NCBI RefSeq assembly: GCF_003628555.1
Contig: NZ_CP021731.1
Coordinates: 1,550,001 to 1,614,000, forward strand
DNA length: 64,000 bases
Source of the DNA: Azoarcus sp. DN11
GTDB taxonomy: Bacteria > Pseudomonadota > Gammaproteobacteria > Burkholderiales > Rhodocyclaceae
Direction of reading: 5' to 3'
Shown piece by piece: positions 5,206 to 27,634 of this stretch. Every line of letters begins with the position of its first letter. Position 1 is the stretch's first letter. The notes beneath the pieces are model-generated. The model had not been told where the DNA came from. It searched no databases and saw only the letters and a list, made by a program, of their open reading frames with translations. Both the position numbers and the translations under genes were made by a program.

Positions 5206-5341
5206 CAGGGGTTCCGGCGGCGTGCAACAGGGAAATGTCGCGCAACGAGGGTTTCCTGTCAAACCCGCAACAGGCGGATCGGGGCGCCGGCGGTGCGATT
5301 TGCTAACATGTGACATCCCCCAACCCGAAGAGCCGATTGCC

Positions 5342-6127
5342 ATGATTTTCGTGATCTCCCCGGCCAAGGCGCTCGACTACGAAACGCCGCCGGTGACCGA
5401 CGTGCATACGCAGCCCGACTACCTCGGCGATGCGGCCGAACTGATCGCGGTGATGCGCGAGAAGTCGCCGGCCGAGGTTTCCGCGCTGATGGATATCTCC
5501 GACCAGCTTGCGACGCTCAACGTGGCGCGCTACGAATCCTGGGCGCCGCCGTTCTCGCTCGCCAACGCGAAACAGGCCGTGCTGGCCTTCAACGGCGACG
5601 TGTACGAGGGGCTCGCCGCGACGACGTTGTCGCCGGCGGAGCTCGAATGGGCGCAAGCGCACTTGCGCATCCTGTCGGGCCTGTACGGCCTGCTGCGGCC
5701 GCTCGACCTGATGCAGGCGTATCGCCTGGAGATGGGGACGCGGCTCGCGAATCCGCGCGGGAAGAATCTGTACGCCTTCTGGGGCGACAAGCTGACCATG
5801 GCGCTGAACGGGTTGCTCGCACAGCAGCGCGAGGCCGGTGCCGTACCCGTGCTGGTCAATCTGGCGTCTGAGGAATACTTCAAGTCCGTGATCCCGGCGA
5901 AGCTTGCGGCGCCGGTCGTGACGCCGGTGTTCGAGGACTGGAAGGGTGGGCGCTACAAGATCATCAGCTTCTACGCGAAGCGCGCGCGCGGGCTGATGTG
6001 CCGCTACGCGATCCGCAACCGGGTCGAGGATGTCGAGGGCCTCAAGGGCTTCGACCTGGAAGGTTACGCGCTCGCGCCCGAGGCGTCAGACCGGGACACG
6101 CTGGTGTTCCGCCGTCGCGTCGAGTGA
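5342..6127 (+). CDS. yaaA: Peroxide stress protein YaaA (DUF328)
   Basis: This is a YaaA/DUF328 family protein of 261 residues. E. coli YaaA lowers free intracellular iron during peroxide stress and binds DNA; the same role here is inferred. It begins [17 protein letters not shown], the hallmark N-terminus. It also has [34 protein letters not shown] and the C-terminal [12 protein letters not shown] with YAL and FRR segments. The 136-bp gap to the divergent bioA should hold both promoters; I see a weak TAACAT -10 at 5304-5309 without a good -35. Confidence 0.95.
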
Positions 6128-6137
6128 GGGCCCTCGC

Positions 6138-7265
6138 ATGAAGATCAGTCACAGCTTCGACTCGGGTGCGATCGAGGTGCTGAGCGTCGACGATCCGGGG
6201 AACATCCGCCTGCGCCTGCGGGCGGACAATGCCGCGGAGTTTCGCCAGTGGTTCCACTTCCGCGTGCAGGGCGCGGCGGGGCAAAGCCTGCGCATGGTGT
6301 TCGAGAACGCCGCGGAAGCGGCTTATCCGGACGGATGGCCGGGCTACCGCTGCGTCGCGTCGTACGACCGGCGCAGCTGGTTTCGCGTTGCCGACACGCG
6401 CTACGAGGATGGCCAGCTGATCGTCGAGCACGCGCCCGAGCACGGCAGTGTCTATTACGCGTACTTCGAGCCGTATTCCTACGAGCGCCACCTCGATCTC
6501 GTCGGCTGGGCGGAGATGTCGCCCTTCGCGCAGGCGGATAGCCTGGGATGGACGGTCGAAGGGCGGGAGATCGACCGCATCGTCGTCGGGCGGGCGACGC
6601 CGGGACACCGGCCGGTGTGGGTCATCGCGCGTCAGCACCCGGGCGAGACGATGGCCGAGTGGTTCATCGAAGGCTTGCTGGAGCGGCTGCTGGATGCCGC
6701 AGACCCGGTCGCGCGCCGCATCCGCGAGCGCGCCGTGCTCCACATCGTGCCGAACATGAATCCGGACGGCGCGATCCACGGCAACCTGCGCACGAACGCC
6801 GCGGGGCGCAATCTGAACCGCGAATGGCGTGCGCCGGACGAGCAGGCGAGCCCCGAAGTCTTCCATGTCCGCCGGGCGATGGAAGCGACGGGCTGCGATC
6901 TCTTCCTCGACATCCACGGCGACGAGGCGCTGCCCTACGTGTTCTTTTCGACCGCGGAAGAGGTGCCCGGCTTTACCGTGGAGACTGCCGCGCGGCAGGC
7001 CCGCTTCGTCGCGGCGTTCGCTGCGGCGAGCCCGGATTTCCAGACTGAGGAGGGTTACAAGCCCGGCCGCTTCGGCGAGGAGCTGCTGACGCTGGCGAGC
7101 AAGTGGGTGGCGCACCGCTTCGGCTGCGTGTCGCTGACGCTGGAGATGCCGTTCAAGGACAACGCGAACCTGCCCGACGGGCATGCGGGCTGGAGCGGTG
7201 CGCGCAGCAAGCGGATGGGTGCGGCGATGCTGAACGCGATCCTCGCGCACCTGGAAGGTGCGTGA
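6138..7265 (+). CDS. M14-family zinc carboxypeptidase (cytosolic carboxypeptidase-like)
   Basis: This is a 375-residue metallocarboxypeptidase related to the M14 cytosolic carboxypeptidase (CCP/AGBL) group. An N-terminal beta domain of about 120 residues, containing the CCP-type segment FRQWFHFRVQG, precedes the peptidase domain. Zinc-ligand motifs are RQHPGETMAEWFIEG (H-x-x-E) and LFLDIHGDEALP (distal His). NPDGAIHGNLRTNAAGRNLN is the substrate-arginine region, and LTLEMPFKDN carries the catalytic Glu. It follows yaaA by 10 bases and may be cotranscribed. There is no signal peptide, so it should be cytoplasmic. The substrate is unknown. Confidence 0.88.
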   Translation: MKISHSFDSGAIEVLSVDDPGNIRLRLRADNAAEFRQWFHFRVQGAAGQSLRMVFENAAEAAYPDGWPGYRCVASYDRRSWFRVADTRYEDGQLIVEHAPEHGSVYYAYFEPYSYERHLDLVGWAEMSPFAQADSLGWTVEGREIDRIVVGRATPGHRPVWVIARQHPGETMAEWFIEGLLERLLDAADPVARRIRERAVLHIVPNMNPDGAIHGNLRTNAAGRNLNREWRAPDEQASPEVFHVRRAMEATGCDLFLDIHGDEALPYVFFSTAEEVPGFTVETAARQARFVAAFAAASPDFQTEEGYKPGRFGEELLTLASKWVAHRFGCVSLTLEMPFKDNANLPDGHAGWSGARSKRMGAAMLNAILAHLEGA

Positions 7266-12801: not shown

Positions 12802-13344
12802 TCACATCTTGCTGTCGTGAAGAACTCCGCCGTCGAGTACCGCCATATCGGGGGTGACCGCGTCGAAGGCGAGAACCTTGCCGCCGTATGTCTCGGCAAA
12901 TGTCCGGGCGTCCGCCTGTTGCGCGAAGGAGGCGATCGTCGGCCCCATCGAGCCCGTGCGCGAGCTGCCGATGACGTACCAAGCCGTTTTCGCGTCGATC
13001 CACGAGTCGCGTGGCTGGTTCCAGTCGGCCTTGCCCATGTCCTGAACGAAGATGGCCTTCACCGGGCGAACCTGTTCCGGCTTCAGGTAGATGCTGAACA
13101 TCTCCACGGTGTCGCAGAAGAAATCCGGCTCGGGGCGGTCGCCGTAGAAAATCTGCGCCTTCGGGCCGGGGTAGTCGGCGAGCAGCATGCCGTCGAGGGA
13201 GCACGTGGTGCCGGGGTTGAGCTCGACGGCTGCGAGCTTCTTGCCGCCGTCGCTGCCTCCCTGGCTGCAGGCGGCGATGAGGCCGGCCGCGAGGGCGGCA
13301 AGCAGGGTCGTGCGGACGGGGATGCGTTGTCGATCGGGGGTCAC
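12802..13344 (-). CDS. nosL: Nitrous oxide reductase accessory lipoprotein NosL
   Basis: NosL is a periplasmic Cu(I)-binding lipoprotein that delivers copper for the NosZ CuZ centre. The 180-residue product starts with GTG, overlapping the nosY stop (GTGA). The signal peptide ends in LIAAC, a lipobox. The copper motif CSLDGMLLADY (C-x-x-D-G-M) and the second conserved C-D-T segment FFCDTVEMF are present, with a family-typical M-G-K-A-D-W-N stretch. It follows nosDFY as expected. Confidence 0.93.
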   Translation of the reverse strand: MTPDRQRIPVRTTLLAALAAGLIAACSQGGSDGGKKLAAVELNPGTTCSLDGMLLADYPGPKAQIFYGDRPEPDFFCDTVEMFSIYLKPEQVRPVKAIFVQDMGKADWNQPRDSWIDAKTAWYVIGSSRTGSMGPTIASFAQQADARTFAETYGGKVLAFDAVTPDMAVLDGGVLHDSKM

Positions 13345-14156
13345 TTGCGGAATCTCCAGGCGGCAACGCCGAGCGGCGTTGCGATCCAAGCAGTCATCAC
13401 GAGGCCGAGCAGCCAGGGCTCGGCAAGCGCGCGCGGGAACACGGTGGCGAGCCCGTACAGCGTGCGGACGTCGTCGAGGGAAAAGATGTTGAGGATGCGG
13501 AAGACATCGGCCGGGTTCAGCAACAGGAGGTAAGGGAATATCTCGCCGCCGTACTTGCCGCCGGTGACGACGAGTGCGCCAAGCAGCAGGAGGTCGAACA
13601 CCAGCACGAAAAGGAACCACAGCGCGATCGCGAAGCCGGAGGCGCGCGTGCGGTCGGCGGCGAACACCGACACCATCACGGCGAGGCTGAGGAACGCCAG
13701 TCCCAGCAGCACCGAGCTCAGCATGAAGCCGAAATAATGCATCAGCGCGGCGAGGTTGAGCTGCGCCGATAGCACGATCGCGACGAGGCCGAAGCCGGCG
13801 ATGGTTGAGAACGCGAGCGCGGCGGCGAGGCCGAGGTACTTGCCGAGCAGCAGCTCGAAGCGCGTGATCGGCATCGACAGCAGCAGGTCCAGCGAACCGC
13901 GTTCGCGTTCGCCGACGATGGCGTCGAAGCCGAGCACCAGCGCGATCAGGGGGACGAGATAGATCACCAGCGAGACGAGGCTGGCGATCGTGAATTCGAT
14001 CGAGCGGAAGCCGACCGTGCCCTGCTGCGCGCCGCCGAAGTAGGCAATCACGAGGGCGAAGACGGTGAATACAAGGGCGACCGCGAGTACCCAGCGATTG
14101 CGGATGCGGTCCCAGAATTCCTTGCCGGCGATGGCGGCGATCTGTCGCAGTTCCAT
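13341..14156 (-). CDS. nosY: ABC transporter permease NosY
   Basis: NosY is an ABC-2-type membrane protein of 271 residues with about six transmembrane segments. With the ATPase NosF and the periplasmic NosD it forms the NosDFY machine that helps assemble the copper-sulfide CuZ site of NosZ. The start MELRQIAAIAGKEFWDRIRN and the DAIVGERERGSLDLLLSMP motif, shared by ABC-2 permeases, are clear. It is 12 bases from nosF and overlaps nosL. Confidence 0.94.
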   Translation of the reverse strand: MELRQIAAIAGKEFWDRIRNRWVLAVALVFTVFALVIAYFGGAQQGTVGFRSIEFTIASLVSLVIYLVPLIALVLGFDAIVGERERGSLDLLLSMPITRFELLLGKYLGLAAALAFSTIAGFGLVAIVLSAQLNLAALMHYFGFMLSSVLLGLAFLSLAVMVSVFAADRTRASGFAIALWFLFVLVFDLLLLGALVVTGGKYGGEIFPYLLLLNPADVFRILNIFSLDDVRTLYGLATVFPRALAEPWLLGLVMTAWIATPLGVAAWRFRK

Positions 14157-14168: not shown

Positions 14169-15110
14169 TTAATCGGCGAAGCCGAAGAACACGTCTTCGA
14201 GCGAAGGCTCGTGCACGTGCAGGTCGAGTACCTTGCTGCCGAGCGAGGTGAGGGCGTTCATCACCACCATCTTCGACTCGCGCCGACACTCGACGGCGAC
14301 GTGGTCGTCGCGGGCTTCGATGGCGATCACCGGCAGGTCGCCGAGCACCTGGCGCACGTATTCGAAGTCCTCATGCGCGAGGTGGACGCGGAACCACAGC
14401 GGCAGGTCCATCTGTTCGCGCAGGTCTTGCACCGTGCCCACGGCCTGTACCTTGCCGGCAGCCATGATTGCGAGGCGATCGACACGTTCCTGGATCTCGG
14501 CGAGGATGTGCGAGGTGAGGATCATCGTCACGCCCTCGGCCTTGAGGCCGCGCAGGATCGCGTAGAACTCCCGGATGGCTTCCGGATCGAGGCCGGTGGT
14601 GGGTTCGTCGAGGAACAGGATGCGCGGGCGGCCGAGGAGCGCCTGCGCAAAGCCGAGGCGCTGGCGCATGCCTTTCGAATATTCGCGCACGCGTCGGCGC
14701 GCGGCCTGGGCGAGGCCGACGCGTTCGAGCGCGGGGCCGCATTCGCTCGCGGCAACCCCCTTCAGGCGTGCGAAGAACTCGAGCGTTTCGACGCCGGTGA
14801 GGTTGTCGTAGAGGACGACGTTCTCGGGCAGGTAGCCGATCTTGCGCCGCACGGCGCGGAAGCCGCTGCCGGTGACGGGCGAACCGTCGATACGGATGTC
14901 GCCGGCAGTGGCCGGAATCAGGCCGAGCATCATCTTGAACAGGGTGCTCTTGCCGGCGCCGTTGTGTCCGATCAGGCCGAACAACTCGCCGGGCGCGACC
15001 GCCAGGTCGACGCCGTCGACCGCGCGCACCGCGCCGTAATGCTTGGTTGCGCTGCGCACCGCGATCACCGGAGCGGCGCCTTCAGCGGGAGCCGGGGAAG
15101 TATCTGCCAA
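14169..15110 (-). CDS. nosF: ABC transporter ATPase NosF
   Basis: This is the 313-residue ATP-binding subunit of the NosDFY maturation complex. Walker A is GHNGAGKST, the ABC signature is YSKGMRQRLGFAQALL, Walker B is ILFLDEPTTGLDPE and the switch His is in MILTSHIL. Translation appears to begin at TTG (15110). That start would lie inside the original 3' end of nosD, overlapping it by 29 bases, which fits translational coupling. The amber codon in nosD at 15256-15258 now leaves 145 untranslated bases ahead of this start and may reduce nosF expression. Confidence 0.93.
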   Translation of the reverse strand: MADTSPAPAEGAAPVIAVRSATKHYGAVRAVDGVDLAVAPGELFGLIGHNGAGKSTLFKMMLGLIPATAGDIRIDGSPVTGSGFRAVRRKIGYLPENVVLYDNLTGVETLEFFARLKGVAASECGPALERVGLAQAARRRVREYSKGMRQRLGFAQALLGRPRILFLDEPTTGLDPEAIREFYAILRGLKAEGVTMILTSHILAEIQERVDRLAIMAAGKVQAVGTVQDLREQMDLPLWFRVHLAHEDFEYVRQVLGDLPVIAIEARDDHVAVECRRESKMVVMNALTSLGSKVLDLHVHEPSLEDVFFGFAD

Positions 15111-15255
15111 GCCAATCTCTCCAGTTTGCGTACTTGGGCCGCATGTGCGGCTTCGGGTCGACGACGCTGGGCGCGCGCAACAGCGGAAACTGCTGGCCGA
15201 CGAGGCGCAGCGTCTGCACCGCCGGGCTCGCCAGCAGCAGTTTCACCAGCGGGTG
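15082..15255 (-). other. Severed C-terminal coding remnant of nosD
   Basis: Directly after the TAG, in the same frame, lie 57 sense codons and a TGA at 15082-15084. The readable protein includes HPLVKLLLASPAVQTLRL, then QQFPLLRAPSVVDPKPHMRP and WRDWLGRYFPG. This has the character of the C-terminal tail of NosD, and its end overlaps the TTG start of nosF as in an intact nosD-nosF junction. No start codon with a ribosome site precedes it, so it is translated only by read-through. Confidence 0.85.
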
Positions 15256-16380
15256 CTACCAGGACAGGCGGTCGACGAGGTCGTTGGCTTCGTAGGGGAC
15301 GTCACCCAGGCCGTCGCCGTTGCGGTCCCAGCCAAGATAGTTGCTCCAGTGGTTGCCGTCCTTGACGCCCCACAACTCGTCCTTCGCGCCGACGTAGCGG
15401 ACCTGTTCGCGGTTGCTGATGAAGTCGTTGTCCTCGACCGCGTTGTTTTTCGACCCTGCCCAGAGGTGCACGCCCACGATGTTATCGACGACGAGGTTGC
15501 CGCGCAGCGTGTTGTACTCGGCGTCGTAGATGAAGAAGCCGCGGTTGTTGCCGGCGACGATGTTGTTTTCGACCACGGAGTCCTGGATCGTGCGCAGCAT
15601 GATGCCGTGGTCCGAGTTGGCCCAGGCGCGGTTGTTCCGCACCGTCTGCTCGCGCACTTCCATGAGCGCGAGGCCGCCGCGGTTCATGTATACGTCGTTG
15701 TCTTCCCACAGGTTGTAGTAGGAGTTCATGTAGTGCGTGCCGTAGCGGCTGTGGTGCAGGCGGTTGCCCCGGAACACGGCATGGTGCGAGACGTCGACGT
15801 AGATCGCGTCGCGCACGAAGCTGATGCGGTTGCCGATGATCTGTGCGCCGGTGGTGTTGTAGAGCTGGATGCCGTTGCCGCGGCTCGCGGAGCGATAGTC
15901 GCGTTTCCCGGTGATGACGTTGTTTTCGATGCGGACGTCCTTGACCCTTTCGATCCACAGGCCGAAGAGGTTGTAGGTCAGGTCGCAGTTGCGTACGACC
16001 GCGCGGTCCGCGCCGGAGGGGATGTAGACGCCGGCGTTCTGCGCTCCGAGATCGTCGCCCGAGTCGCGCACGATCAGGCCCTCGATGACGACGTCGGGGG
16101 AACTGATCCGGATCGTGTCGCCCTTCTGGCCGCCGCTGAGCGTGGGGCGGTTCACGCCGCGCAGCGTCAGCGGTTTGGTGATCAGCAGGTTTTCCGTGTA
16201 GGTGCCGCGCGCGACCTCGATCACGTCGCCCGCGGCGGCGCGCCCGATGGTGGCCTGGATCGATTCGCCCGGAACGACCGTCAGCGTCGCGGCCAGCGCC
16301 GGCAGGGCGCACGACAGCGCCAGCAGGGCCAGACAGGCGTGCCGCAGTGTGCGGGTGTGCACCGTCGCAATGGCGCGCAT
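15256..16380 (-). CDS. nosD: NosD, beta-helix copper-site maturation protein, cut short by an amber codon
   Basis: NosD is a periplasmic right-handed parallel beta-helix protein needed to insert copper into NosZ. The ATG at 16380 gives a signal peptide ending near ALPALAA, then repeated beta-helix coils rich in N-N-x-(I/V) (for example IENNVITG, VENNIVAGNNRGFFI). The frame ends at TAG (15256-15258) after DRLSW. The same frame stays open for 57 more codons, and these read like the normal NosD C-terminus. The product is therefore 374 residues instead of about 432. Function may be lost or retained. Confidence 0.85.
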   Translation of the reverse strand: MRAIATVHTRTLRHACLALLALSCALPALAATLTVVPGESIQATIGRAAAGDVIEVARGTYTENLLITKPLTLRGVNRPTLSGGQKGDTIRISSPDVVIEGLIVRDSGDDLGAQNAGVYIPSGADRAVVRNCDLTYNLFGLWIERVKDVRIENNVITGKRDYRSASRGNGIQLYNTTGAQIIGNRISFVRDAIYVDVSHHAVFRGNRLHHSRYGTHYMNSYYNLWEDNDVYMNRGGLALMEVREQTVRNNRAWANSDHGIMLRTIQDSVVENNIVAGNNRGFFIYDAEYNTLRGNLVVDNIVGVHLWAGSKNNAVEDNDFISNREQVRYVGAKDELWGVKDGNHWSNYLGWDRNGDGLGDVPYEANDLVDRLSW

Positions 16381-16381: not shown

Positions 16382-16816
16382 TCACCCCAGGACAACGAGG
16401 AACCCGAGCGTCTTCAGCACGATGAACAAGGTCGCGCCGATCAGCAGGTTCTTGAAGCCGACGTAACACACCATGTCCATCGTGTTCGCCACGCGATAGC
16501 GGCGGCCCCACCACGGACCGTCCTTGACGTAGGGTTTGGAGCCGAGTCGCACGAAGACCTCGAACACGCTCCAGCCGAACCACCAGCCGATCACGGCGGC
16601 AGCCTGCAGGTGGCCGAGCAGCGCCAGCACCCACACGACGGTGGCGGCGAGGCCGAGCGCCATGCCGGCCCCCTGAAGGGCGCGCTGGCGCTGGAAACCG
16701 TGATGGCTCCACGGCCATAGATGATCCCACACTTCGGCCGCGATGAAGCGCGTGAGGCTCGTCGTTTCCGCGTAGGGTGGGTTCGCGGGGTCGGTCGGCA
16801 TCGTCGGGTTGACCAT
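16382..16816 (-). CDS. Conserved small membrane protein of the nos cluster
   Basis: This is a 144-residue integral membrane protein with three to four hydrophobic segments: MALGLAATVVWVLALLGHL, VIGWWFGWSVFEVFVRL, then MVCYVGFKNLLIGATLFIVL and a C-terminal VLKTLGFLVVLG. The loop GSKPYVKDGPWWGRRYRVA between them is basic. There is no signal peptide and no metal motif. It lies 17 bases after nosR, with its stop two bases from the nosD start, so it is in the nosR-nosD transcript. I do not recognise a named nos gene here; a role beside NosR in the membrane is inference. Confidence 0.8.
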   Translation of the reverse strand: MVNPTMPTDPANPPYAETTSLTRFIAAEVWDHLWPWSHHGFQRQRALQGAGMALGLAATVVWVLALLGHLQAAAVIGWWFGWSVFEVFVRLGSKPYVKDGPWWGRRYRVANTMDMVCYVGFKNLLIGATLFIVLKTLGFLVVLG

Positions 16817-16833: not shown

Positions 16834-19014
16834 TCAGTTCTTCGCCGCCGCGCCGGCGCGCGTGGGCACCGGCTTGATCGGGATGTAATAGCCATCGGCG
16901 CCGATCGGCGTGATCGGGAGCCCGGCCTTGTCGCGGCGCTTGCGTTCCTGTGCAAGCGGCGGGCAGGCGTGGTCGTCCGTATACAGGATCATGCAGTCGA
17001 GGCAGTGCAGGCACTCGCGGTGGTCGATGCGCCCGTCCTCGTCGATCGCCTGCGAACCGCAGCCGACCGCGCAGGCCTTGCAGCTGGCGCATTCCTGCTT
17101 GCGCTTGAGTCCGAACCAGCGGAAGGTCGAGGGCATCGCGAGCGAAGCGCCGAGCGGGCACAGGTACTTGCAGAACGGCCGTTCGATGAAGATCGACAGC
17201 CCCAGCAGTCCGGCCGCGAACAGGGTGTAGGGCCAGCTGCGGTTGAACAGGCCGACGAGGAAAGTGGTCTTGAAGGGTTCGACCTCGGCGAGCTTCTCGG
17301 CCAGCCCCATCGAGAACATGGACACGGTCAGCAGCCCGAAGAACACGAAATACTTCACCCACTTCAGCCGGTTGTGCCAATGCCGCGGCAACTGGAACTG
17401 GAAGCGCTTGAGGCCCACGGCACCGCCGACCTTGTAAAGCAGTTCCGACAGCGAGCCGAAGGGGCACAGCCAGCCGCAGAAGAGGCCGCGTCCCCAGACG
17501 AACACCGTGACGATGATGAAGATCCAGAACAGGAAGATGAAGGGGTCCGACAGGAACAGTTCCCACTGCCAGTGCAGCAGCAGGGCATGGAACCAGGTGA
17601 GCACCTGCGTGATCGAGGGCTGCGCGAGCATGCCGAAGCCGACGAAGCCGATGCTGATGATCCATCCCGCGTACTTGAAGGCGTTGACCGGCCACTTGTT
17701 CTTGCGCGTCGCGCGACGCGTGAGTTTGTCGCGGAAGGCGTAGACGGTGGCGACGGCGATCAGCAGCGCGGCGAAGAGCGCGATCTCGACCGCGCGCGTC
17801 TTCCACACGCGCACCCAAGGCGCGTCCGGCTTGACGACCTGGGGACGGCCGCCCTGCAGGTACTGCGCCGGCAGCCAGTATTCGGTATCGAAGTTCGCGA
17901 AGCTGCGCGCGCCGGTGGCGCGATCGACGCGGTTGCCGAGGAAGACGAATTTCCACGGATAGGCCGCCGAGAACGCCTTCGAGCGCACGATGAAGATCGA
18001 CGATTCGGTGAAGGCCGGCGCGCCCGGAGCGGCGATCCCATAGAGGTTGGTGGCGTCGGTATCGCGGAAGGTGAAGGCGTCCCCACCCTGGCGCACCTGC
18101 ACGCGGTCGTAGATGCCGCCGCGCACGAAACCGGAGCCCTTGAATGACTGGGTGCCGCCGGTACGGATCACGAAGAGCGCCTGTTCGCCTTCCTTGAGGC
18201 TGGACATCAGGCTGTTGTACGGGCCGTCACCGAGAATCGCGCGGCCGATGTCGGGCTGGTTGAGGTAACCGAACCACAATTCGATGAACGGGTCTGCGCT
18301 GCGCGCGAGACCGGCCTGTTCGGCCGTCACGAGAACGCGCTGCACGCTGCCTTCGCGGACGAGCGTGGCCCAGTCCGGTTTCGTCCCGGTCTGGACGAAC
18401 TTGGCCTGTTCGCGGATTGTCGGCTTCAGGATGCCGACCTGGCGCGCGATCGACGTGCCCGAGGTCATCATCACCTGGTTCTGCGAGATCACCGTGACGG
18501 TTGCGCCCGAGATCGCGTCGAGACCGACGATGTTTTCCTCCGGCCGCGAGCGGCCGATCTCGATGTTGTTGCCGACGAACTGGCCCAGGTACTGCTGGTT
18601 GAAGCGGACCAGGGACGATTCGGGAATGCCCAGCAGCAAGATGGGCTCCGAGTGCTTGAGGATCTTGACGCCGACGAACTTCCCGGCGGTGTCCATGCCG
18701 ATCAGCGTGATCACCGGCTTGCCGGAATATGCCGGGGTATCGGTGATGTCGGTGGACAACATCACATAGCCGACGAGCTTCTTCTTGCCGCCTTCCTCCA
18801 CGTACCCCTCCACGTACGAAGGCTGGCCCTTGCGTTCCGAAAAACTGGTCGCACCGGGCAGCACTTCCGCGCACGGCGCGTATTTGCACAGATCGGGGGA
18901 AGTGTTCAGTTCGTCCGGAAGCTTGGCCTCATAGGTGTTGGCGAGCGCCAGGGACGCAAGAGACGAGAGCAGCAGGGGGAGCAGGGTGTTGCGCAGTGCA
19001 GCCAGGAGTTTCAT
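16834..19014 (-). CDS. nosR: NosR, membrane flavo-iron-sulfur protein of N2O respiration
   Basis: NosR supplies electrons to NosZ from the quinol pool and is needed for nosZ expression and activity. The 726-residue product has a signal peptide and a periplasmic FMN-binding domain with the flavin-attachment motif DAISGATVT. Five to six membrane helices follow. Two C-x-x-x-C-P motifs are present (CGWLCPFG and CKYLCPLGA). At the C-terminal cytoplasmic end are two ferredoxin-like clusters, CASCKACAVGC and CLHCLDCMI. The ATG at 19014 is preferred over an in-frame ATG at 19026. An FNR-like box lies 64 bases upstream, and a terminator separates it from nosZ. Confidence 0.95.
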   Translation of the reverse strand: MKLLAALRNTLLPLLLSSLASLALANTYEAKLPDELNTSPDLCKYAPCAEVLPGATSFSERKGQPSYVEGYVEEGGKKKLVGYVMLSTDITDTPAYSGKPVITLIGMDTAGKFVGVKILKHSEPILLLGIPESSLVRFNQQYLGQFVGNNIEIGRSRPEENIVGLDAISGATVTVISQNQVMMTSGTSIARQVGILKPTIREQAKFVQTGTKPDWATLVREGSVQRVLVTAEQAGLARSADPFIELWFGYLNQPDIGRAILGDGPYNSLMSSLKEGEQALFVIRTGGTQSFKGSGFVRGGIYDRVQVRQGGDAFTFRDTDATNLYGIAAPGAPAFTESSIFIVRSKAFSAAYPWKFVFLGNRVDRATGARSFANFDTEYWLPAQYLQGGRPQVVKPDAPWVRVWKTRAVEIALFAALLIAVATVYAFRDKLTRRATRKNKWPVNAFKYAGWIISIGFVGFGMLAQPSITQVLTWFHALLLHWQWELFLSDPFIFLFWIFIIVTVFVWGRGLFCGWLCPFGSLSELLYKVGGAVGLKRFQFQLPRHWHNRLKWVKYFVFFGLLTVSMFSMGLAEKLAEVEPFKTTFLVGLFNRSWPYTLFAAGLLGLSIFIERPFCKYLCPLGASLAMPSTFRWFGLKRKQECASCKACAVGCGSQAIDEDGRIDHRECLHCLDCMILYTDDHACPPLAQERKRRDKAGLPITPIGADGYYIPIKPVPTRAGAAAKN

Positions 19015-19071
19015 CGGACTTACCATTTGGCGGGACTGGAGCCAGTCTACGAAATGCCCCTTCGTGTGTAA

Positions 19072-19085
19072 TTGTTTCTGGTCAA
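19072..19085 (-). promoter_or_regulatory. FNR/DNR-type box upstream of nosR
   Basis: TTGTT-TCTG-GTCAA matches the FNR/DNR consensus TTGAT-N4-ATCAA at 8 of 10 positions. Its centre is 64 bases before the nosR ATG. With the usual -41.5 position the transcript would start about 22 bases before the gene. The spacing equals that of the perfect box ahead of the hemerythrin operon at 38158. Confidence 0.6.
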
Positions 19086-19117
19086 TTTGGGCAAATGTAA
19101 ATTGCGTGCCGGATGCG

Positions 19118-19144
19118 AAAAAAAGGAGGGGCGCAAAGCCCCTC
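19118..19144 (-). terminator. Rho-independent terminator after nosZ
   Basis: On the minus strand a GAGGGGC stem (19138-19144 with 19126-19132) with a five-base loop is followed by CC and a run of seven T (19124-19118). It lies 90 bases below the nosZ stop and above the nosR promoter, so nosZ is largely a separate transcript from nosR-nosDFYL. Confidence 0.85.
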
Positions 19145-19235
19145 GAAATGTCACCCATCGGTACCTCCATGAAAGAAGGCACTCACCTGCGCCAGAGCCT
19201 GCTTCGCCCCGGCGCAGTCCGGCTGGAGGCCTTTG

Positions 19236-21185
19236 TCAGGCCTCGACGATCATGCGGCTGCGCATCTCCAGGTGCAGGGCGTGGCAGAAGTGCGTGCAGT
19301 AGCACCAGTAGACGCCGGGCTTGTCAGCCTTGAACGTGACCGACTTGGTCTCCTGCGGGTTCACGATGAAGTTGATGTCGTACTTCGGGATCGCGAAGCC
19401 GTGCGTCAGGTCCTCGACCTTGTCGTGGTTGGTCAGGATGATCGTGACCTCGTCGCCCTTCTTCAGCTTGAACTCGGGCAGGCTGTAGGCGGGGGCCTGG
19501 CTGGTCAGCTTGACCGTGACCTTCTTGCCGTCCCGGAACACGCCGCTGTCCTTGAACTCCTTCACCGCGTTCGGGAAGTCGTCCATGTTGTAGATCTGGC
19601 GCGTCTTGATGATGTCGCGGCGGATCACGATGGAGTCGTGCGGCTCGGACAGCACCGAGTGGTCGGCCACCAGCTTCATCTTGTCGCCGCTGATGTCGAT
19701 CATCTGGGCCGTTTCGGGGTGCAGCGGGCCCACGGGCAGGAAGCGGTCCTTGGAGAACTTGTTGTCCGAGATGAAGTATTTGCCGTCGGATTCCTTCGTC
19801 TCGCCCATCGACGTGAAGCCGTGGCCCGGCTGGTAATGCACGTCGATGCGGTCGACGACGACGGTGACGTTCTTGTCGCCCTTGTAGGCCTTGATCGCGG
19901 CCTCGACGTTCCACTTCACGATCTGGCTGTCGAGGAACAGGGTGGTGTAGGCGTTGCCCTTGTTGTCGAACCCGGTGTGCAGGGGGCCGAGGCCGATTTC
20001 CGGTTCGGCAACGACGGTGTCGCGCGGTTCCTTGAGTTCACCGTCGAACCATTTCAGCACCAGCTCATGCTCGATCACCGAGGCGGTGGGCGACAGCTTG
20101 CCCGAGCAGGCGTAATACTTGCCGTCCGGGCTGATGTTCACGCCGTGCGGGTTCTTCGGGATCGGGACGTAGCAGGTCAGCGCGGTCTTCGGGTCGGCGT
20201 TCGACGCCTTGCGGCCGTCGACGACAGGAACCTTGGAATCGCCGATGTAAGTGACCTTGCCGGCCTTGACGGCTTCCTCGATCCGGGCGACGTGGAAGAA
20301 CAGGCAGGCGTCGCGTTCGGCCGCCATCATGTCCGGGTAATGGACACCCATCTCGGTGTTGTACTGGTTGGTCGCCGCGAGCTTGCCGTCGTACGAGGTC
20401 GCAACGAGGTCGCAGTTGCCGTCGATCAGCACCTGCCAGCGCACCTGCATCGATTCGCTATCCACGCAGGTGAAGAGCGAGCGGTATTCGTCGATCTTGT
20501 CCATGTTCTTGCCGACGTTCGGCAAGGGAATGGAAAACTCGGCGCCGCAGAAGACGCGGGTGGTGTAGTTGATCGCGGCGTCGACCGGGTCGCGCTTGTC
20601 CGGGAACGTGCCGTGATAGCCCTGGATGTTGGGAATCTCGGTGATCTTGTCGCACTCCATCGTGTCGAGGCGCACGCGCGCAATGCGGCCGTGGATCTTG
20701 TCGTTCACGAACAGGTACTTGCCGTCGTACGTACCATCCTTGTACGAGGGGTGGACGTGGTGCGTGTCGCCGGTCTGGTACTTGAGGCTGCCGTCGGGCT
20801 TGGTGCCGATGATCGCCTTCGATTCGTTGGTGATGCCCCAGCCGACGAGGCAGTCGGTGTTGAAGACCGGGATGCATTTCAGTTCGCGGCCCGACGGGAG
20901 GCCATAAACGCGCACGTTGCCCGAATGGCCGCCGCTCGAGAAGGAGTAGTAGGTGTCGAGCTGGCCCGGAGCGACCTCGTACTTGCCGAGCTCAGCCGCC
21001 TCGGCCGCGGGGTGGGCTGCGGGAGCCGCTGCCGGAGCGGGAGCCTGTTCCTGCTTGCACGCCGCCAGGCCGACCGACAGACCTGCACCGGCAAGACCCG
21101 CGAATGCGGCGGTATTGAGGAATTTCCGGCGGCTCGGGTCGGGTTGACCGTCGAGTTGCTGGGCGTTGGTCTTGTCCTGGCTCAT
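19236..21185 (-). CDS. nosZ: Nitrous oxide reductase NosZ (clade I)
   Basis: NosZ is the periplasmic copper enzyme that reduces N2O to N2. The 649-residue protein has a Tat signal (SRRKFLNTAAFAG), a seven-bladed propeller with the CuZ histidines (for example GDTHHVHPS), and a C-terminal cupredoxin domain with the CuA motif CYCTHFCHALHLEM. The Tat signal and overall pattern fit clade I (typical denitrifiers). The signal ends GLAAC-K followed by a Pro/Ala linker, a possible lipobox. I chose the ATG at 21185 with GGAG upstream; a TTG seven codons earlier is unlikely. Confidence 0.97.
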   Translation of the reverse strand: MSQDKTNAQQLDGQPDPSRRKFLNTAAFAGLAGAGLSVGLAACKQEQAPAPAAAPAAHPAAEAAELGKYEVAPGQLDTYYSFSSGGHSGNVRVYGLPSGRELKCIPVFNTDCLVGWGITNESKAIIGTKPDGSLKYQTGDTHHVHPSYKDGTYDGKYLFVNDKIHGRIARVRLDTMECDKITEIPNIQGYHGTFPDKRDPVDAAINYTTRVFCGAEFSIPLPNVGKNMDKIDEYRSLFTCVDSESMQVRWQVLIDGNCDLVATSYDGKLAATNQYNTEMGVHYPDMMAAERDACLFFHVARIEEAVKAGKVTYIGDSKVPVVDGRKASNADPKTALTCYVPIPKNPHGVNISPDGKYYACSGKLSPTASVIEHELVLKWFDGELKEPRDTVVAEPEIGLGPLHTGFDNKGNAYTTLFLDSQIVKWNVEAAIKAYKGDKNVTVVVDRIDVHYQPGHGFTSMGETKESDGKYFISDNKFSKDRFLPVGPLHPETAQMIDISGDKMKLVADHSVLSEPHDSIVIRRDIIKTRQIYNMDDFPNAVKEFKDSGVFRDGKKVTVKLTSQAPAYSLPEFKLKKGDEVTIILTNHDKVEDLTHGFAIPKYDINFIVNPQETKSVTFKADKPGVYWCYCTHFCHALHLEMRSRMIVEA

Positions 21186-21315
21186 GTGATGGGCTCCGTT
21201 ATTCAAGCGTCGTTTGTTTTGCCGATGAAAGGTGTGCCGTTGTGGCGGCGCACGCGTGCAGGGCGGCCCGAATCGGGCGCTGCCGCAACTCTAGTGAGGT
21301 GGTGGCGGGGCGTCC

Positions 21316-21917: not shown

Positions 21918-22607
21918 TCAAAGCTGGGGATCCTGCACGATTCCCTGTTCGACCGCAAATACCGCCGCCTGCACGCGGCTCGACAGACCGAGTTTGCGCA
22001 GGATGTTCTGGACGTGGATCTTGACCGTGCTTTCCGCCAGATCGAGTGCGCGCGCGATTTCCTTGTTGCTGTGTCCGCGCGCGACGAGGACGAGGATTTC
22101 ACGCTCGCGCGGCGACAGCTTGTTCAGTTCGGAGGCGACCACCGCGGGGGCGGCCGTTTCGTGTGCGACCTTTGGCGATCCGCCGCGAACGCCCTGCACG
22201 AGCTTGCCCATCATCTGCGGCGAGATCACCGATTCGCCGGCTGCCGCTTTCGTGATCGCAGCGGTCAGCGTGTCGGCCTCGATGTTCTTCAGGAGGTAGC
22301 CGCAGGCTCCCGCGCGCAAGGTTTCGATGAGATCCTCGGCGTCCTCGGAGACGGTCAGCATCAGGACGTGCGCCTCCGGCGCCTCCTCGGTCATCATCGC
22401 CGCGGCGTCGCGGCCCGAGAGACCGGGCATGTGCAGGTCGAGCAGCACCACGTCGGGGCGCAGCCGCGCCGCCTGCTTGACCCCTTCCATCCCGTCGCCG
22501 GCCTCGCCGACGATCTCGAACTCCGGATGGAGTTGCAGCAGGGATTTGATGCCGCTGCGGAAGAGGGCATGGTCATCGACGAGGAGCACGCGGATCGGGG
22601 CGGGCAT
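21918..22607 (-). CDS. narL: Nitrate/nitrite response regulator NarL
   Basis: NarL is a two-component DNA-binding regulator that activates nitrate respiration genes when phosphorylated by NarX. It has 229 residues. The receiver domain has the acidic pocket LLVDDHALF, the phosphorylated Asp in VVLLDLHMPGLSG, and the switch Thr and Lys in MLTVSE and YLLKN. A LuxR/NarL helix-turn-helix follows: LSPREREILVLVARGHSNKE, then IARALDLAESTVKIHVQNI. Its ATG overlaps the narX stop by one base (ATGA type), so the pair is coupled. Confidence 0.93.
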   Translation of the reverse strand: MPAPIRVLLVDDHALFRSGIKSLLQLHPEFEIVGEAGDGMEGVKQAARLRPDVVLLDLHMPGLSGRDAAAMMTEEAPEAHVLMLTVSEDAEDLIETLRAGACGYLLKNIEADTLTAAITKAAAGESVISPQMMGKLVQGVRGGSPKVAHETAAPAVVASELNKLSPREREILVLVARGHSNKEIARALDLAESTVKIHVQNILRKLGLSSRVQAAVFAVEQGIVQDPQL

Positions 22608-24559
22608 CAGTGAGGTTCCTGGCTGACTCGGGGAAGGTCGAGGCGGACTTCGGTGCCGCGGCCGGGCGCCGAATGCAGGGAGAAGTCGCCGCCGATGCGC
22701 TGCGCGCGCTCGCGCATGACCTGCAGGCCGATGTGGTTTTCCTTGTCATGTGCGGTGCATCCGGCTTCGTCAAAGCCGATGCCGTCGTCGCGCACGACCA
22801 CCGTCAGCCCATGCACGCCGCGCCGCAGCGCGACGTGTACGGATTTCGCCTGGGCGTGCTTGCGCACGTTGGACAGGGTTTCCTGGACGATATAGAGCGC
22901 CTGTGTCTCGACCTCGGCGTCGAGCGGCGCACCACCGCCCTCGAGTTCGAGGTCCGTGGCGATGCCGGTCTGGTCGGAGAGCCGCCTGAGCGTGGCGCCG
23001 ATCGCGCCGGAGAGGTCCTGCTTCGCGACACGCGTGCGGAAATGCACCAGCAGCTCGCGCACGTCGTCGTAGCTCTCCTGGACGCCCTGGCGAAGCATGG
23101 CGAGGGTGCCCTGCGCCTGGCGCACGTCGTTGTGCCGCAGCGCGTCGTCGAGCATCTGCACCTGCAGGTTCATGAAGGCGAGGCCCTGGGCGATCGAGTC
23201 GTGCAATTCGCGGGCGAGCAGGTTGCGTTCCTCCGATACCGCGAGCTCGCGGTCGCTCGCGTGCAGGCGCTGGTTCTCGACCGCGATGCCGAGCTGCTGG
23301 CCCAGCGTTTCGAGGAGCTGGCGGTCGGAGTCCTCGAGGCGTTGCGCGTCGCGGAAATACAGGTTGTAGATGCCCAGGGTCTGCTGGTTGGCGCCGATCG
23401 GGATTGCGGCGACGGCCTTGAAGCCGGCGCGGTGGCACGCGCCGAGATCGAGTCCGGGATCGGGGCCGTCGAGTTTGCACACGAGCGAAGTACCGCCGCG
23501 GGCCGCCTGGCCGCACATGCATTCGCCACAGCTCAGCGTCGCCTCGAAGTCGATGAATTGCTCATCCAGCCCGGAATGCACGGTCATGCAAAGCTGGCTC
23601 GAATCCTTGTCGAGCAGCCGCGCGGAACTCGCCGTTGCGCCGCACAACTTCTGCACGCGCTGCAGGAAGCCGCGGCACAGGGCATCCACGTCCTGCGGTT
23701 GGCGCAGGAAGGCTGACATGTCGTAAAGGATCTCGAGCTGGCGGTTCTTTTCCTCGAGGCTGCGGGTCTTGACGTCGACCCGCTCCTCGAGCGTTTCGTA
23801 CAGCCCCTGCAGGTGGACGGCCATGCGGTTGAAGCCGTCGGACAGATCGCCGAATTCGTCGTTGCCGAGGACCGGGACGCGGACGCTGAAGTCTTCCTGC
23901 TCCATCCGCTTGATGCCGGTCTGCAGTTCCGATACGGGGCGGATCACGAGTACGAAGAAGAAACGGATCAGGAACAGCGTTCCGATCACCGCCAGCGCGA
24001 TCAGGCACACCTGCGAGGCCCGCAGGATGTCGGTGTTGCGCGCGTAGCTCTGTTCCATCTTCAGCACGACGGCGTTCATGCCGGTCACGAAGCCGCGGAT
24101 CGTGTCGTCGAACGCGGGGGGGTCCGCGGGGATGGTGAGGGCGTTGGATGGATCGAGCACGCCGTCGAGCAGCGGACGGACCCGTTGGGACCAGAATTCC
24201 ACCATCCGCTGCATGTCCGCGGGAATGGCGTTGTCGCGCGGGACGAACAGCGGGCGTTGCGGGTTGCCGTGGCGCAGTTCGTCGAGGATGAAGTCGAATT
24301 CGGCGACTTCCGTCCCGAGCGTCTCCCGGATGCGCACCGTGTCGGCCGGCGAAGCCTGCGGGGCGTGCGCGAGAAGGTGGCCGATGCGATGCATGCGCAT
24401 GCGCAGGCTGCCGGCGTCGTTGATCGCCGCGGCGGCGCCTTCGAGTTGCCAGGACATGAAGAGCGTGACCCCGATCGCCGTCAGGGCGACGAGGAAGAAC
24501 ACCAGCAGGATGCCGGTGATCTTGGTGCTGAGACTCTTGCCGAGGGGAAGCATGGACAT
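22607..24559 (-). CDS. narX: Nitrate/nitrite sensor histidine kinase NarX
   Basis: NarX is a membrane sensor kinase that detects periplasmic nitrate and nitrite. The 650-residue protein has a first membrane helix, a periplasmic helical domain with the P-box-like segment SLRMRMHRIGHLL, and a second helix near residues 160-180. A HAMP domain, a GAF-like domain with several cysteines (CGECMCGQA), a HisKA_3 phosphoacceptor (ARELHDSIAQGLAF) and a HATPase domain (VRDDGIGFDE, VMRERAQRIGG) follow. The start is ambiguous between ATG codons at 24559 and 24553; neither has a clear ribosome site. It is cotranscribed with narL. Confidence 0.92.
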   Translation of the reverse strand: MSMLPLGKSLSTKITGILLVFFLVALTAIGVTLFMSWQLEGAAAAINDAGSLRMRMHRIGHLLAHAPQASPADTVRIRETLGTEVAEFDFILDELRHGNPQRPLFVPRDNAIPADMQRMVEFWSQRVRPLLDGVLDPSNALTIPADPPAFDDTIRGFVTGMNAVVLKMEQSYARNTDILRASQVCLIALAVIGTLFLIRFFFVLVIRPVSELQTGIKRMEQEDFSVRVPVLGNDEFGDLSDGFNRMAVHLQGLYETLEERVDVKTRSLEEKNRQLEILYDMSAFLRQPQDVDALCRGFLQRVQKLCGATASSARLLDKDSSQLCMTVHSGLDEQFIDFEATLSCGECMCGQAARGGTSLVCKLDGPDPGLDLGACHRAGFKAVAAIPIGANQQTLGIYNLYFRDAQRLEDSDRQLLETLGQQLGIAVENQRLHASDRELAVSEERNLLARELHDSIAQGLAFMNLQVQMLDDALRHNDVRQAQGTLAMLRQGVQESYDDVRELLVHFRTRVAKQDLSGAIGATLRRLSDQTGIATDLELEGGGAPLDAEVETQALYIVQETLSNVRKHAQAKSVHVALRRGVHGLTVVVRDDGIGFDEAGCTAHDKENHIGLQVMRERAQRIGGDFSLHSAPGRGTEVRLDLPRVSQEPH

Positions 24560-24613
24560 TCGATGAAACAGGGTGGCGTGCAGACTACGACGCCTGCCGC
24601 CACCCCGCAAGTC

Positions 24614-24632
24614 GGGGGCGCCTGCCGCCCCC
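24614..24632 (-). terminator. GC hairpin after narI
   Basis: A 7-bp stem (GGGGGCG at 24614-24620 with 24626-24632, five-base loop) lies in the 87-base gap between narI and narX. No T run follows, so it may only weaken read-through into narXL. Confidence 0.4.
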
Positions 24633-24646
24633 GGAGGATGTCCGCC

Positions 24647-25354
24647 TCAGGCCGAAGCGGGCGCCTTGATGCGCCGCTTGGAGCGCACGATCTGGTAGGC
24701 GCGGCCGACGTAGCTCAGCGGCGCGGTGAGAATGTGCACGAGGCGAGTGAAGGGAAACATCAGGAACACCGTCATCCCCAGCACCAGGTGGAAGCGGAAC
24801 ACCGGCTCCACCGAGGCGAGCAGCTCCGGTTTCGGCTGGAGGGTGAGCACGCTCTGCACCCAGCCCGCCAGCGCCAGCATCACGTCCGGATTGCCGTGGT
24901 TGGCATGTCCGATCGACACCGGCAGCGTCGACAGGCCGGCTACCAGCGTCAGCAGCAGCCAGCTCAGGATGAAGGCATCCATGCGGCGGCCGGCGGCGCG
25001 CACGCGCGGGTTGAACATGCGGCGCAGCCACAGGATCGCACCGCCGATCAGGCACATCGCGCCGAACACGCTGCCGGCGACGATCGCGATCCACTGGTGC
25101 TGCAGGTCGGTGACGCCCAGCCCGACCCACAGCGCGTGCGGCAGCACGAGGCCGGCGAAGTGCCCGGCGAAGATCGACAGGATGCCGACGTGGAACAGGT
25201 TGCTCGCGATCCACATGTTGCTCTTCGACAGCAGCTGCGAGGAGTCAGTCTTCCACGTGTACTGCTCGTTGTCGTAGCGGATCCAGCTGCCGATCGCGAA
25301 CACCGAGAGCGCGATGTAGGGATAGATCCCGAAGAAGAAGTTGATTGCGTTCAT
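24647..25354 (-). CDS. narI: Respiratory nitrate reductase gamma subunit NarI
   Basis: NarI is the membrane cytochrome b subunit (235 residues, five helices) that oxidises quinol and passes electrons through two b hemes to NarH. It starts MNAINFFFGIYPYIALSVFA. Histidine heme ligands appear in LFHVGILSIFAGHFAGL and in the last two helices (FRFHLVLGMTVFL, FTRLVHILTAP). Nine bases separate it from narJ. It is the last gene of narKKGHJI. Confidence 0.95.
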   Translation of the reverse strand: MNAINFFFGIYPYIALSVFAIGSWIRYDNEQYTWKTDSSQLLSKSNMWIASNLFHVGILSIFAGHFAGLVLPHALWVGLGVTDLQHQWIAIVAGSVFGAMCLIGGAILWLRRMFNPRVRAAGRRMDAFILSWLLLTLVAGLSTLPVSIGHANHGNPDVMLALAGWVQSVLTLQPKPELLASVEPVFRFHLVLGMTVFLMFPFTRLVHILTAPLSYVGRAYQIVRSKRRIKAPASA

Positions 25355-25363
25355 GTCGTCTCC

Positions 25364-25906
25364 TCAGGCAGCCAGGCGGGTCAGGCTGCCCTGTTTCTCC
25401 ACGATCCGGACCAGCGGCGCGTACGGGCTGGCGGATTTTTCCAGGTTGTCGGCGAGCACCTTGAGCACTTTCGCGACGTCGCCGAGGAAGATCCAGGCTT
25501 CGCCGATGCTCAGCGTCGAGCAGAACTCCAGCATCACCGGCAGGTAATCCGGGAGTTCCTTCTCGTCGGCCTGCAGGCCGTAGCTGCGGTAGAACTCGCC
25601 GAGGTCGATCAGCGCCGGTCCGCGCGTTTTTTCCTCGCCGAAGAGGTGGTGCGTCAGGTGCAGGCTGTGTTCGGCCGTGAGGTCGAAGCACTGCACGTAG
25701 GCGCCTTGCAGCTCCAGCGGGTCGGAGGCGAGCAGCATCGCGATGAAGTCGGCGATGCCGCGGTACTCCTCGACGCTGAGGGCGGTTTCCTCGTCGAGCG
25801 ACTCGACGAAGGCGTACGGGTCCTTTCCGGCGAGCTCGCGCAGGTCGGCGAGGAGGCTGTCGGTCGGGTAGTCGAGCAGGGCGGCCAGCAGGCGGAAGAT
25901 TTTCAT
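25364..25906 (-). CDS. narJ: Nitrate reductase molybdenum cofactor assembly chaperone NarJ
   Basis: NarJ is a cytoplasmic TorD-family chaperone that holds apo-NarGH while the molybdenum cofactor and the FS0 cluster are inserted. The 180-residue all-helical protein starts MKIFRLLAALLDYPTDSL and has the conserved YVQCFDLTAEHSLHLTHHL segment and the DLGEFYRSYGLQ motif. The ATG at 25906 is 11 bases after narH, with a GGAGAC-type site; longer in-frame extensions are spurious. Confidence 0.95.
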   Translation of the reverse strand: MKIFRLLAALLDYPTDSLLADLRELAGKDPYAFVESLDEETALSVEEYRGIADFIAMLLASDPLELQGAYVQCFDLTAEHSLHLTHHLFGEEKTRGPALIDLGEFYRSYGLQADEKELPDYLPVMLEFCSTLSIGEAWIFLGDVAKVLKVLADNLEKSASPYAPLVRIVEKQGSLTRLAA

Positions 25907-25917
25907 CGTTGTCTCCT

Positions 25918-27468
25918 TTAGTCGCGGGGGCCGGCAAGAGGCGCCGGTTCGCGCGGTTCGGCGGACTCGGTACGGCGTTCGGGGAAGAGGGCGAAAGTGC
26001 CGTAACCCTTGGAGTTGTCGGCGCCGAAGGTGAAGCCGTTCTGGCCCTGGAAGCCGTGGTAGTCGTCCAGCCGGATTTCCTCGTGCGCAGTCGGCACGAC
26101 GAAGCGGTCCTCGTAGTTGGCGATCGCGAGGTAGCGGTACATGTCCTTCGCGTTCTGCTCGGTGATGCCGGCGCGGTTGAGCGGGGCGAGGTCCGGCTGG
26201 CCGTCCACGTTGATCGAGCGCATGTAGGAGCGCATCGCGAGCAGGCGGTTGAGCGCGCTGGTGATGTACTCCGTCTTGCCGGCGGTGAGCAGGTTCGCGA
26301 GGTATTGCACCGGCAGGCGCATCGCCTCGGCCTTCGGGATCACGCCGTCCGATTCGGTCGGCAGGTTCTTCTGGTCGATCTGCGACTGCACGGGCGAGAG
26401 CGGCGGCACGTACCAGATCATCGGCAGCGTGCGGAACTCGGGGTGCAGCGGGAAGGCGATCTTCCACTCGACGGCCATCTTGTAGATCGGCGACTTCTGC
26501 GCGGCGTCGATCCAGCTCTGCGGCACGCCGTCCTTGAGCGCCTGGGCGATGATCGCGGGGTCGTAGGGGTCGACGAAGAGATCCAGGTGGGCCTTGTAGA
26601 GGTCCTGCTCGTTGTCGGTGGAGGCGGCGTCGAGCAGCTTGTCGGCGTCGTAGAGGATGATGCCGTTGTAGCGGATGCGGCCGACGCAGGACTCGGAACA
26701 GACGGTCGGCAGGCCGGATTCGACGCGCGGGTAGCAGCCGATGCACTTCTCGGCCTTGGACGATTCCCAGTTGAAGAACACCTTCTTGTACGGGCAGCCG
26801 GAGATGCACATGCGCCAGCCGCGGCAGCGGTCCTGGTCGGCGAGCACGATGCCGTCTTCCTCGCGCTTGTACATCGCGCCCGAGGGGCAGGAGGCGACGC
26901 AGGCGGGGTTGATGCAGTGGTTGCAGATGCGCGGCAGGTACATGTGGAAGGTGTTCTCGAACTGCTTGTACATCTCCTTCTGCATGTTCGCGAAGTTGGC
27001 GTCCTGCGAGCGCGCGGCGAATTCACCGGCGAGGTCGTCTTCCCAGTTCGGGCCCCAGGTGATCTTGTCCATCTTCTCGCCGGTGATCTGCGACACCGGG
27101 CGCGCGGTCGGCGCGGCTTCGGACAGCGGTGCGTTGTGCAGGCGCGCGTAGTCGTAGGTGAAGGGCTCGTAGTAGTCGTCGATCTCGGGCATGTTGGGGT
27201 TGGCGAAGATCTGCACGATCTTCTTCAGCTTGCCGCCGGCCTTGAGCTCGAGCTTGCCGTTGACCTTTTCCCAGCCGCCTTTCCACTTTTCCTGGTTTTC
27301 CCAGTTCTTCGGATAGCCGATGCCGGGCTTCGACTCGACGTTGTTGAACCAGGCGTACTCGATGCCCTTGCGGTTCGACCACACGTTCTTGCAGGTCACC
27401 GAGCAGGTGTGGCAACCGATGCATTTGTCGAGGTTGAACACCATCGCGAATTGCGCGCGGATTTTCAT
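25918..27468 (-). CDS. narH: Respiratory nitrate reductase beta subunit NarH
   Basis: NarH is the 516-residue iron-sulfur subunit carrying three [4Fe-4S] and one [3Fe-4S] cluster between NarI and NarG. Cysteine groups are CIGCHTCSVTCKNVW at the N-terminus, CNHCINPACVASCP, then CRGWRMCISGCP and KCIGCYPR with CSESC. The Trp replacing Cys in CRGWRMC marks the [3Fe-4S] site of true NarH. It is cytoplasmic, bound to the membrane by NarI. A 166-base gap with a large inverted repeat separates it from narG. Confidence 0.97.
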   Translation of the reverse strand: MKIRAQFAMVFNLDKCIGCHTCSVTCKNVWSNRKGIEYAWFNNVESKPGIGYPKNWENQEKWKGGWEKVNGKLELKAGGKLKKIVQIFANPNMPEIDDYYEPFTYDYARLHNAPLSEAAPTARPVSQITGEKMDKITWGPNWEDDLAGEFAARSQDANFANMQKEMYKQFENTFHMYLPRICNHCINPACVASCPSGAMYKREEDGIVLADQDRCRGWRMCISGCPYKKVFFNWESSKAEKCIGCYPRVESGLPTVCSESCVGRIRYNGIILYDADKLLDAASTDNEQDLYKAHLDLFVDPYDPAIIAQALKDGVPQSWIDAAQKSPIYKMAVEWKIAFPLHPEFRTLPMIWYVPPLSPVQSQIDQKNLPTESDGVIPKAEAMRLPVQYLANLLTAGKTEYITSALNRLLAMRSYMRSINVDGQPDLAPLNRAGITEQNAKDMYRYLAIANYEDRFVVPTAHEEIRLDDYHGFQGQNGFTFGADNSKGYGTFALFPERRTESAEPREPAPLAGPRD

Positions 27469-27527
27469 GCGTTTCTCCTGATGCTTGATCCTTTGGGGCG
27501 GGGGCGTTGTGCCGCTCCCCGCCGGCT

Positions 27528-27607: not shown

Positions 27608-27634
27608 ATCCTGCGTTTGTTCGTACTCGTGGTC

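What the first reader, a model, noticed from the sequence alone, without database searches (positions are those of the whole stretch)
15082..15258. In-frame amber codon splits nosD before its conserved tail
TAG at 15256-15258 is followed, in the same frame, by 57 sense codons that read like the NosD C-terminus and end inside the nosF start region, as an intact nosD would. This is a very recent nonsense change, a sequencing error, or read-through. NosD is needed for the CuZ centre, so the organism may be a partial denitrifier that emits N2O. nosF translation may also suffer from lost coupling.
Basis: partly seen in the sequence, partly recalled or inferred. Interest (0 to 1): 0.7.

Follow-up and report, generated by a model that had tools for sequence, protein, structure and literature searches.

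The report
Amber stop truncates only nosD gene
In this groundwater bacterium the single gene for a helper protein that matures the N2O-destroying enzyme is cut short by one stop codon, so the strain probably releases the greenhouse gas N2O although gene lists would call it a complete denitrifier; a real but ordinary kind of mutation.

Summary
On the minus strand nosD (start 16380) meets TAG at 15256-15258 after 374 codons; 57 sense codons follow and end at TGA 15082-15084, overlapping the nosF start by 29 nt. All 95 distinct relatives' nosD genes examined continue through this codon (Arg 67, Gln 21, Lys 7) into a tail of 52-63 residues. The genome length equals that of Azoarcus (Aromatoleum) sp. 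DN11. A sequencing error is unlikely: 77x MiSeq coverage, and the exact 374-aa protein is on 9 database contigs, apparently not the chromosome. No amber-suppressor tRNA at 56 of 56 tRNA places; RF1 is present. The tail shows no excess of replacements, so the stop looks recent. It is the only nosD found in the genome; a second nosZ is frameshifted at a run of nine G. NirS-type and NorB genes are present. Most likely: a recent nonsense mutation that impairs CuZ assembly, so denitrification probably ends at N2O. That phenotype is inferred, not shown. Known kind of event; modest interest.

The parts
15259..16380 (-). nosD as translated, 374 codons (hydrophobic N-terminus and beta-helix), ATG at 16378-16380
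   Evidence: NCBIfam TIGR04247 387.5 bits, profile 1-337 of 377; Pfam NosD and Beta_helix
15256..15258 (-). in-frame amber codon TAG; Arg, Gln or Lys codon in 95 of 95 distinct relatives examined
15082..15255 (-). remainder of nosD after the stop: 57 sense codons of the conserved C-terminal tail plus TGA 15082-15084
   Evidence: 22 of the 57 positions invariant in 47 aligned NosD
14169..15110 (-). nosF (ABC ATPase), TTG start 15108-15110, intact, conserved GGAGAG ribosome site upstream
13341..14156 (-). nosY (permease), intact
12802..13344 (-). nosL, GTG start, 180 aa, intact
   Evidence: 68.6-84.4% identity over 171-175 of 180 residues in 6 of 6 relatives
16382..16810 (-). small conserved membrane-like ORF between nosR and nosD, matched in 6 of 6 relatives; no Pfam family
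16834..19182 (-). nosR, intact
   Evidence: NosR model matched below its cut-off (617 against 1000 bits)
19236..21206 (-). nosZ, 656 aa, TAT-dependent N2O reductase, intact
   Evidence: TIGR04244 1024.2 bits against cut-off 625

Best explanation
A recent single-base nonsense mutation (a sense codon, Gln in the nearest relatives, became TAG) removed the last 58 residues of the only NosD of Azoarcus/Aromatoleum sp. DN11. The tail is a conserved, structurally ordered part of NosD in the NosDFY transporter. Without it NosD is probably unstable or cannot work with NosFY/NosL, so the intact NosZ does not receive a proper CuZ centre, and denitrification in this strain probably ends largely at N2O (NirS-type and NorB genes are present). 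Shown: the stop, its absence from the relatives examined, the single nosD copy, the intact nosR, nosZ, nosF, nosY and nosL, the conserved tail, no suppressor tRNA by anticodon. Inferred: loss of NosD function and N2O release.
For: Stop and 57-codon continuation. 95 of 95 distinct relatives examined keep the tail, with 0 stops in their aligned bodies. One NosD in the genome. Tail: 22 of 57 positions invariant in 47 NosD; mean conservation of 376-414 is 0.917 against 0.871 for the mature body. It holds the last 40 positions of TIGR04247; the truncated protein covers only 1-337 of 377. It aligns to P. stutzeri NosD, whose solved chain (402 residues in 7o0y_A) is aligned out to residue 429. Recency: tail dN/dS of DN11 versus six relatives 0.23-0.31, against 0.10-0.30 among the relatives; against outgroup G014 DN11 has the fewest tail replacements (13.0; the other five 13.7-17.7). 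nosR, nosZ, nosF and nosY match 6 of 6 relatives in one uninterrupted stretch over at least 91% of their length, nosL over at least 95%. RF1 over its cut-off; no CUA anticodon at 56 of 56 tRNA places. Exact 374-aa protein on 9 contigs, longest 12,598 bp, while intact NosL lists the 4,956,835-bp chromosome. NirS-type gene and NorB present. A P. stutzeri nosD insertion mutant made N2O reductase lacking the CuZ signal (PMC7660919, passages). A second nosZ is frameshifted.
Against: No N2O or N2 measurement of DN11 was found in the papers searched. The truncated protein still scores above the NosD family cut-off (387.5 against 300) and keeps the beta-helix. The tail as a whole (375-432) averages 0.842 and its last 18 residues 0.688 conservation, below the body, and AlphaFold confidence in the tail of the isolated protein is low (10-residue blocks 33-83). 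Five of the six DN11 tail dN/dS values lie at the upper end of the range among relatives, and 57 codons give little power. PMC7825797 (passages) calls all but three Azoarcus/Aromatoleum strains, so by implication DN11, likely complete denitrifiers from gene presence. Recurrence on 9 contigs could mean that the allele does little harm.
Confidence: 0.65

Rival explanations
1. The tail is dispensable: the 374-residue NosD works well enough, and DN11 still reduces N2O.
For: The truncated protein keeps the beta-helix and scores above the TIGR04247 cut-off. The allele recurs on 9 contigs, so it may be tolerated. The tail is predicted with low confidence in the isolated protein, and its last 18 residues are poorly conserved (0.688).
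Against: Tail kept by 95 of 95 distinct relatives examined; its first 39 residues are at least as conserved as the body. It is part of the family model and lies in the ordered part of the solved NosDFY chains.
Confidence: 0.2
2. The amber codon is read through (near-cognate or cryptic suppression), giving some full-length NosD, enough for a low-demand maturation factor.
For: The downstream frame is intact and shows no excess of replacements. The stop is followed by C, a context recalled to be leaky in enteric bacteria.
Against: No CUA-anticodon tRNA at 56 of 56 tRNA places. RF1 present above its cut-off. No relative examined has a stop there, so it is not a programmed feature.
Confidence: 0.1
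3. Sequencing or assembly error.
For: One public chromosome only; the raw reads could not be inspected. The second nosZ lesion lies in a homopolymer.
Against: MiSeq reads at 77x from a PCR-free paired-end and a mate-pair library (whole text). The identical 374-aa protein is on 9 contigs of at most 12,598 bp. The other nos genes compared are intact.
Confidence: 0.04

Closest known systems
NosD, periplasmic beta-helix subunit of the NosDFY CuZ-maturation transporter (TIGR04247; P. stutzeri NosD, PDB 7o0y, 7osf, 7o17)
   Different: The translated protein stops at residue 374; it lacks the C-terminal 40 positions of the family model and the stretch that maps to about residues 382-429 of the solved chain
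Natural single-base nonsense truncation of a respiratory gene: meningococcal ccoP, CAG to TAG (PMC2924362, passages)
   Same: One transition gives an amber codon that cuts a C-terminal part off a respiratory protein
   Different: That allele was confirmed by sequencing many isolates; here recurrence is known only as a count of contigs, and the function is untested

Membership tests
Functional NosD (TIGR04247) | Score over the curated cut-off | tested here: met
   374-aa product 387.5 bits, cut-off 300
Functional NosD (TIGR04247) | Full-length match including the C-terminal tail | tested here: not met
   Product matches profile 1-337 of 377; the read-through protein matches 1-377; the tail is present in 95 of 95 distinct relatives examined
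Functional NosD (TIGR04247) | Located in a nos cluster with nosR, nosZ, nosF, nosY and nosL | tested here: met
Functional NosD (TIGR04247) | Able to support CuZ assembly | not testable with these tools
   Needs an N2O reductase assay or spectroscopy
Programmed stop-codon read-through or recoding | Stop codon conserved among relatives | tested here: not met
   0 of 95 distinct relatives examined
Programmed stop-codon read-through or recoding | Dedicated amber-decoding tRNA or loss of RF1 | tested here: not met
   No CUA anticodon at 56 of 56 tRNA places; RF1 539.2 bits, cut-off 423.25. The paper counts 57 tRNA genes, so one was not seen here
Recent nonsense allele / young pseudogene | Single stop in an otherwise intact frame with no excess of replacement changes downstream | tested here: met
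   low power, 57 codons
Recent nonsense allele / young pseudogene | Loss of function | not testable with these tools
   No phenotype data found

The most novel reading that the evidence does not exclude
This lineage is giving up, or reversibly switching off, N2O respiration: the sole nosD carries a nonsense allele that recurs beyond the published chromosome, and the spare nosZ is out of frame at a run of nine G that could slip back and forth, so that a denitrifier by gene content is an N2O source in its aquifer.
Probability: 0.12. Interest if true: 0.5.

Novelty: new member of a known kind. Interest (0 to 1): 0.3.

Why it matters
Genome surveys predict complete denitrification from the presence of nos genes; PMC7825797 does so for this group (passages). 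Here nosZ is intact but its only maturation protein NosD is cut, so nosZ presence would overestimate N2O removal. DN11 is discussed for in-situ clean-up of benzene (PMC6424213, whole text) and radioiodine (PMC10149662, passages), where N2O release would be an unseen cost. It also offers a natural truncation for testing what the NosD tail does in NosDFY.

Tried and rejected
Coupling to nosF: the GGAGAG site and TTG start are the same in 7 of 7 genomes; two stretches over the nosF start fold no better than shuffles (z 1.13 and 1.20); a strong polar effect is not indicated, though not excluded.

A second natural stop in a relative's nosD: the search listed one TGA, in G042. Read on the correct strand it lies upstream of the first ATG of the frame. 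A first reading had used the wrong strand.

Correction: the nosL row came from an out-of-frame query of mine; one search repeats it in frame, and only that and one search are used for nosL.

General poor assembly: 232 ORFs from 18 stretches of three relatives matched 52 places of the window. Many places were flagged. Besides nosD I printed six flagged places (ORFs around some of them). Five were off-frame, antisense or over-extended frames; the one at 5318-6295 was not resolved, and the remaining flagged places were not read. So I claim no pseudogene rate for the assembly.

Limits of the comparison: one search kept the best 80 of 195 related loci, and one search gave loci for 30 of its matches; tails were read only in those. 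One search lists the best 120 of 2,735 scored proteins.

Source of the 9 contigs with the truncated NosD: not readable here (no scans of metagenome contigs). They may include re-assemblies of the strain's own reads. A full-length conspecific NosD hidden as a member of another 90% cluster cannot be excluded. The second-nosZ search listed no identical entry, best 96%, uninformative for the same reason.

NorB by NCBIfam: no match to a NO-reductase model; identified instead by the solved-structure match 3o0r_B, E 3.6e-231. The 2022 NosDFY structure paper is not held, so contacts of the tail were not checked. The original DN11 isolation paper is not held.

Papers: I found no report of the nosD stop in searches (listings); passages of four papers were seen, and one paper was read whole.

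Full report
Identity. The window is bases 1550001-1614000 of a single-contig genome of 4,956,835 bp. That length is exactly the one printed for Azoarcus sp. DN11, a benzene-degrading denitrifier from gasoline-contaminated groundwater (PMC6424213, read whole; listed as Aromatoleum sp. DN11 in PMC7825797, passages). The assignment is an inference from length, with relatives in Aromatoleum at up to 87% NosD identity.

Observation. nosD lies on the minus strand. From ATG 16378-16380 there are 374 codons, then TAG at 15256-15258, 57 sense codons and TGA at 15082-15084. nosF starts with TTG at 15108-15110, inside the nosD tail, as in the six relatives compared.

Comparison. The 111 loci at hand came, (best 80 of 195 related loci kept; 30 loci). 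Two are own; the other 109 collapse to 95 distinct nosD genes. All 95 have a sense codon at the TAG site (Arg 67, Gln 21, Lys 7) and a tail of 52-63 residues counted from that codon, with no stop in the aligned body. The five nearest species have Gln (CAG or CAA). In one search, 42 of 150 genomes including the own one had a match; the single stop listed, in G042, lies upstream of the first ATG of its frame.

Real or error. The chromosome was built from MiSeq reads of a PCR-free paired-end and a mate-pair library at 77x. The protein database holds the exact 374-aa product on 9 contigs, longest 12,598 bp. As a yardstick, the neighbouring NosL is listed on 7 contigs with longest 4,956,835 bp, so the chromosome is counted for NosL and is not among the 9 for NosD, presumably because nosD is not annotated there as a protein. 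The allele therefore appears in other assemblies, but I could not read them, and some may derive from the same reads.

Read-through. Rfam finds 56 tRNA places (the paper says 57 genes). ARAGORN calls a tRNA at 56 of 56, with 39 different anticodons and no CUA. RF1 is present. With no relative examined sharing the stop, programmed recoding is not supported; accidental leakage remains possible.

Age. Tail dN/dS between DN11 and six relatives is 0.23-0.31, against 0.10-0.30 among the relatives; five of the six DN11 values lie at the upper end. Against outgroup G014 the tail replacements are 13.0 for DN11 and 13.7-17.7 for the other five. The tail thus shows no sign of long neutral drift, with the caution that 57 codons give little power.

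Consequences. There is one NosD in the genome. A P. stutzeri nosD insertion mutant yields N2O reductase without the CuZ signal (PMC7660919, passages). nosR, nosZ, nosF and nosY match 6 of 6 relatives in one stretch over at least 91% of their length, and nosL over at least 95%. Upstream steps are present: a cytochrome cd1 gene of NirS type (513 bits, 575 aa; the name NirS is recalled) and NorB. The likely outcome is nitrate reduced as far as N2O, with poor or no N2O reduction. That is inference; I found no report of the gas products of DN11, while PMC7825797 predicts complete denitrification for all but three strains of the group from gene presence (passages).

A second lesion. The genome has a second nosZ at 1806547-1808455, 81% identical to the first over residues 65-656, with no nosDFY among the ORFs I read around it. 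Its twin-arginine leader and its mature part lie in different frames, separated at a run of nine G (nine C on the coding strand); it is the only run of exactly nine G or C in the 84 kb examined. Second nosZ copies occur in 4 of 17 genomes of the genus searched (own included), and the other three have leader and mature part in one frame. Two nos genes with lesions fit relaxed selection on N2O reduction, but homopolymer miscounting cannot be excluded there.

Verdict. The kind of event is well known: a natural CAG-to-TAG truncation of ccoP in meningococci is a precedent (PMC2924362, passages). Its value is practical: it makes a testable prediction of N2O release by a strain considered for bioremediation.

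Noticed in passing
G000:C1:1806547-1808455 minus (L159:8544-10476): Second nosZ copy with its Tat leader out of frame with the mature part at a run of nine G; one base longer there than the intact copy of genome G015.
   Followed up: partly
window 21924-31450: Beside the nos cluster lie genes that look like a nitrate-responsive two-component pair and narGHJI (names recalled, not searched); the large ones match relatives uninterrupted.
   Followed up: no
protein P0001: A 666-aa database NosD with two similar beta-helix modules in one chain, either a real duplication or an assembly artefact.
   Followed up: no
window 55290-57958: A DNA-adenine-methylase-like ORF near a transposase-like ORF, perhaps a mobile element remnant (recalled resemblance).
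   Followed up: no
window 16382-16810: Small conserved ORF between nosR and nosD without a Pfam family, matched in 6 of 6 relatives compared.
   Followed up: partly
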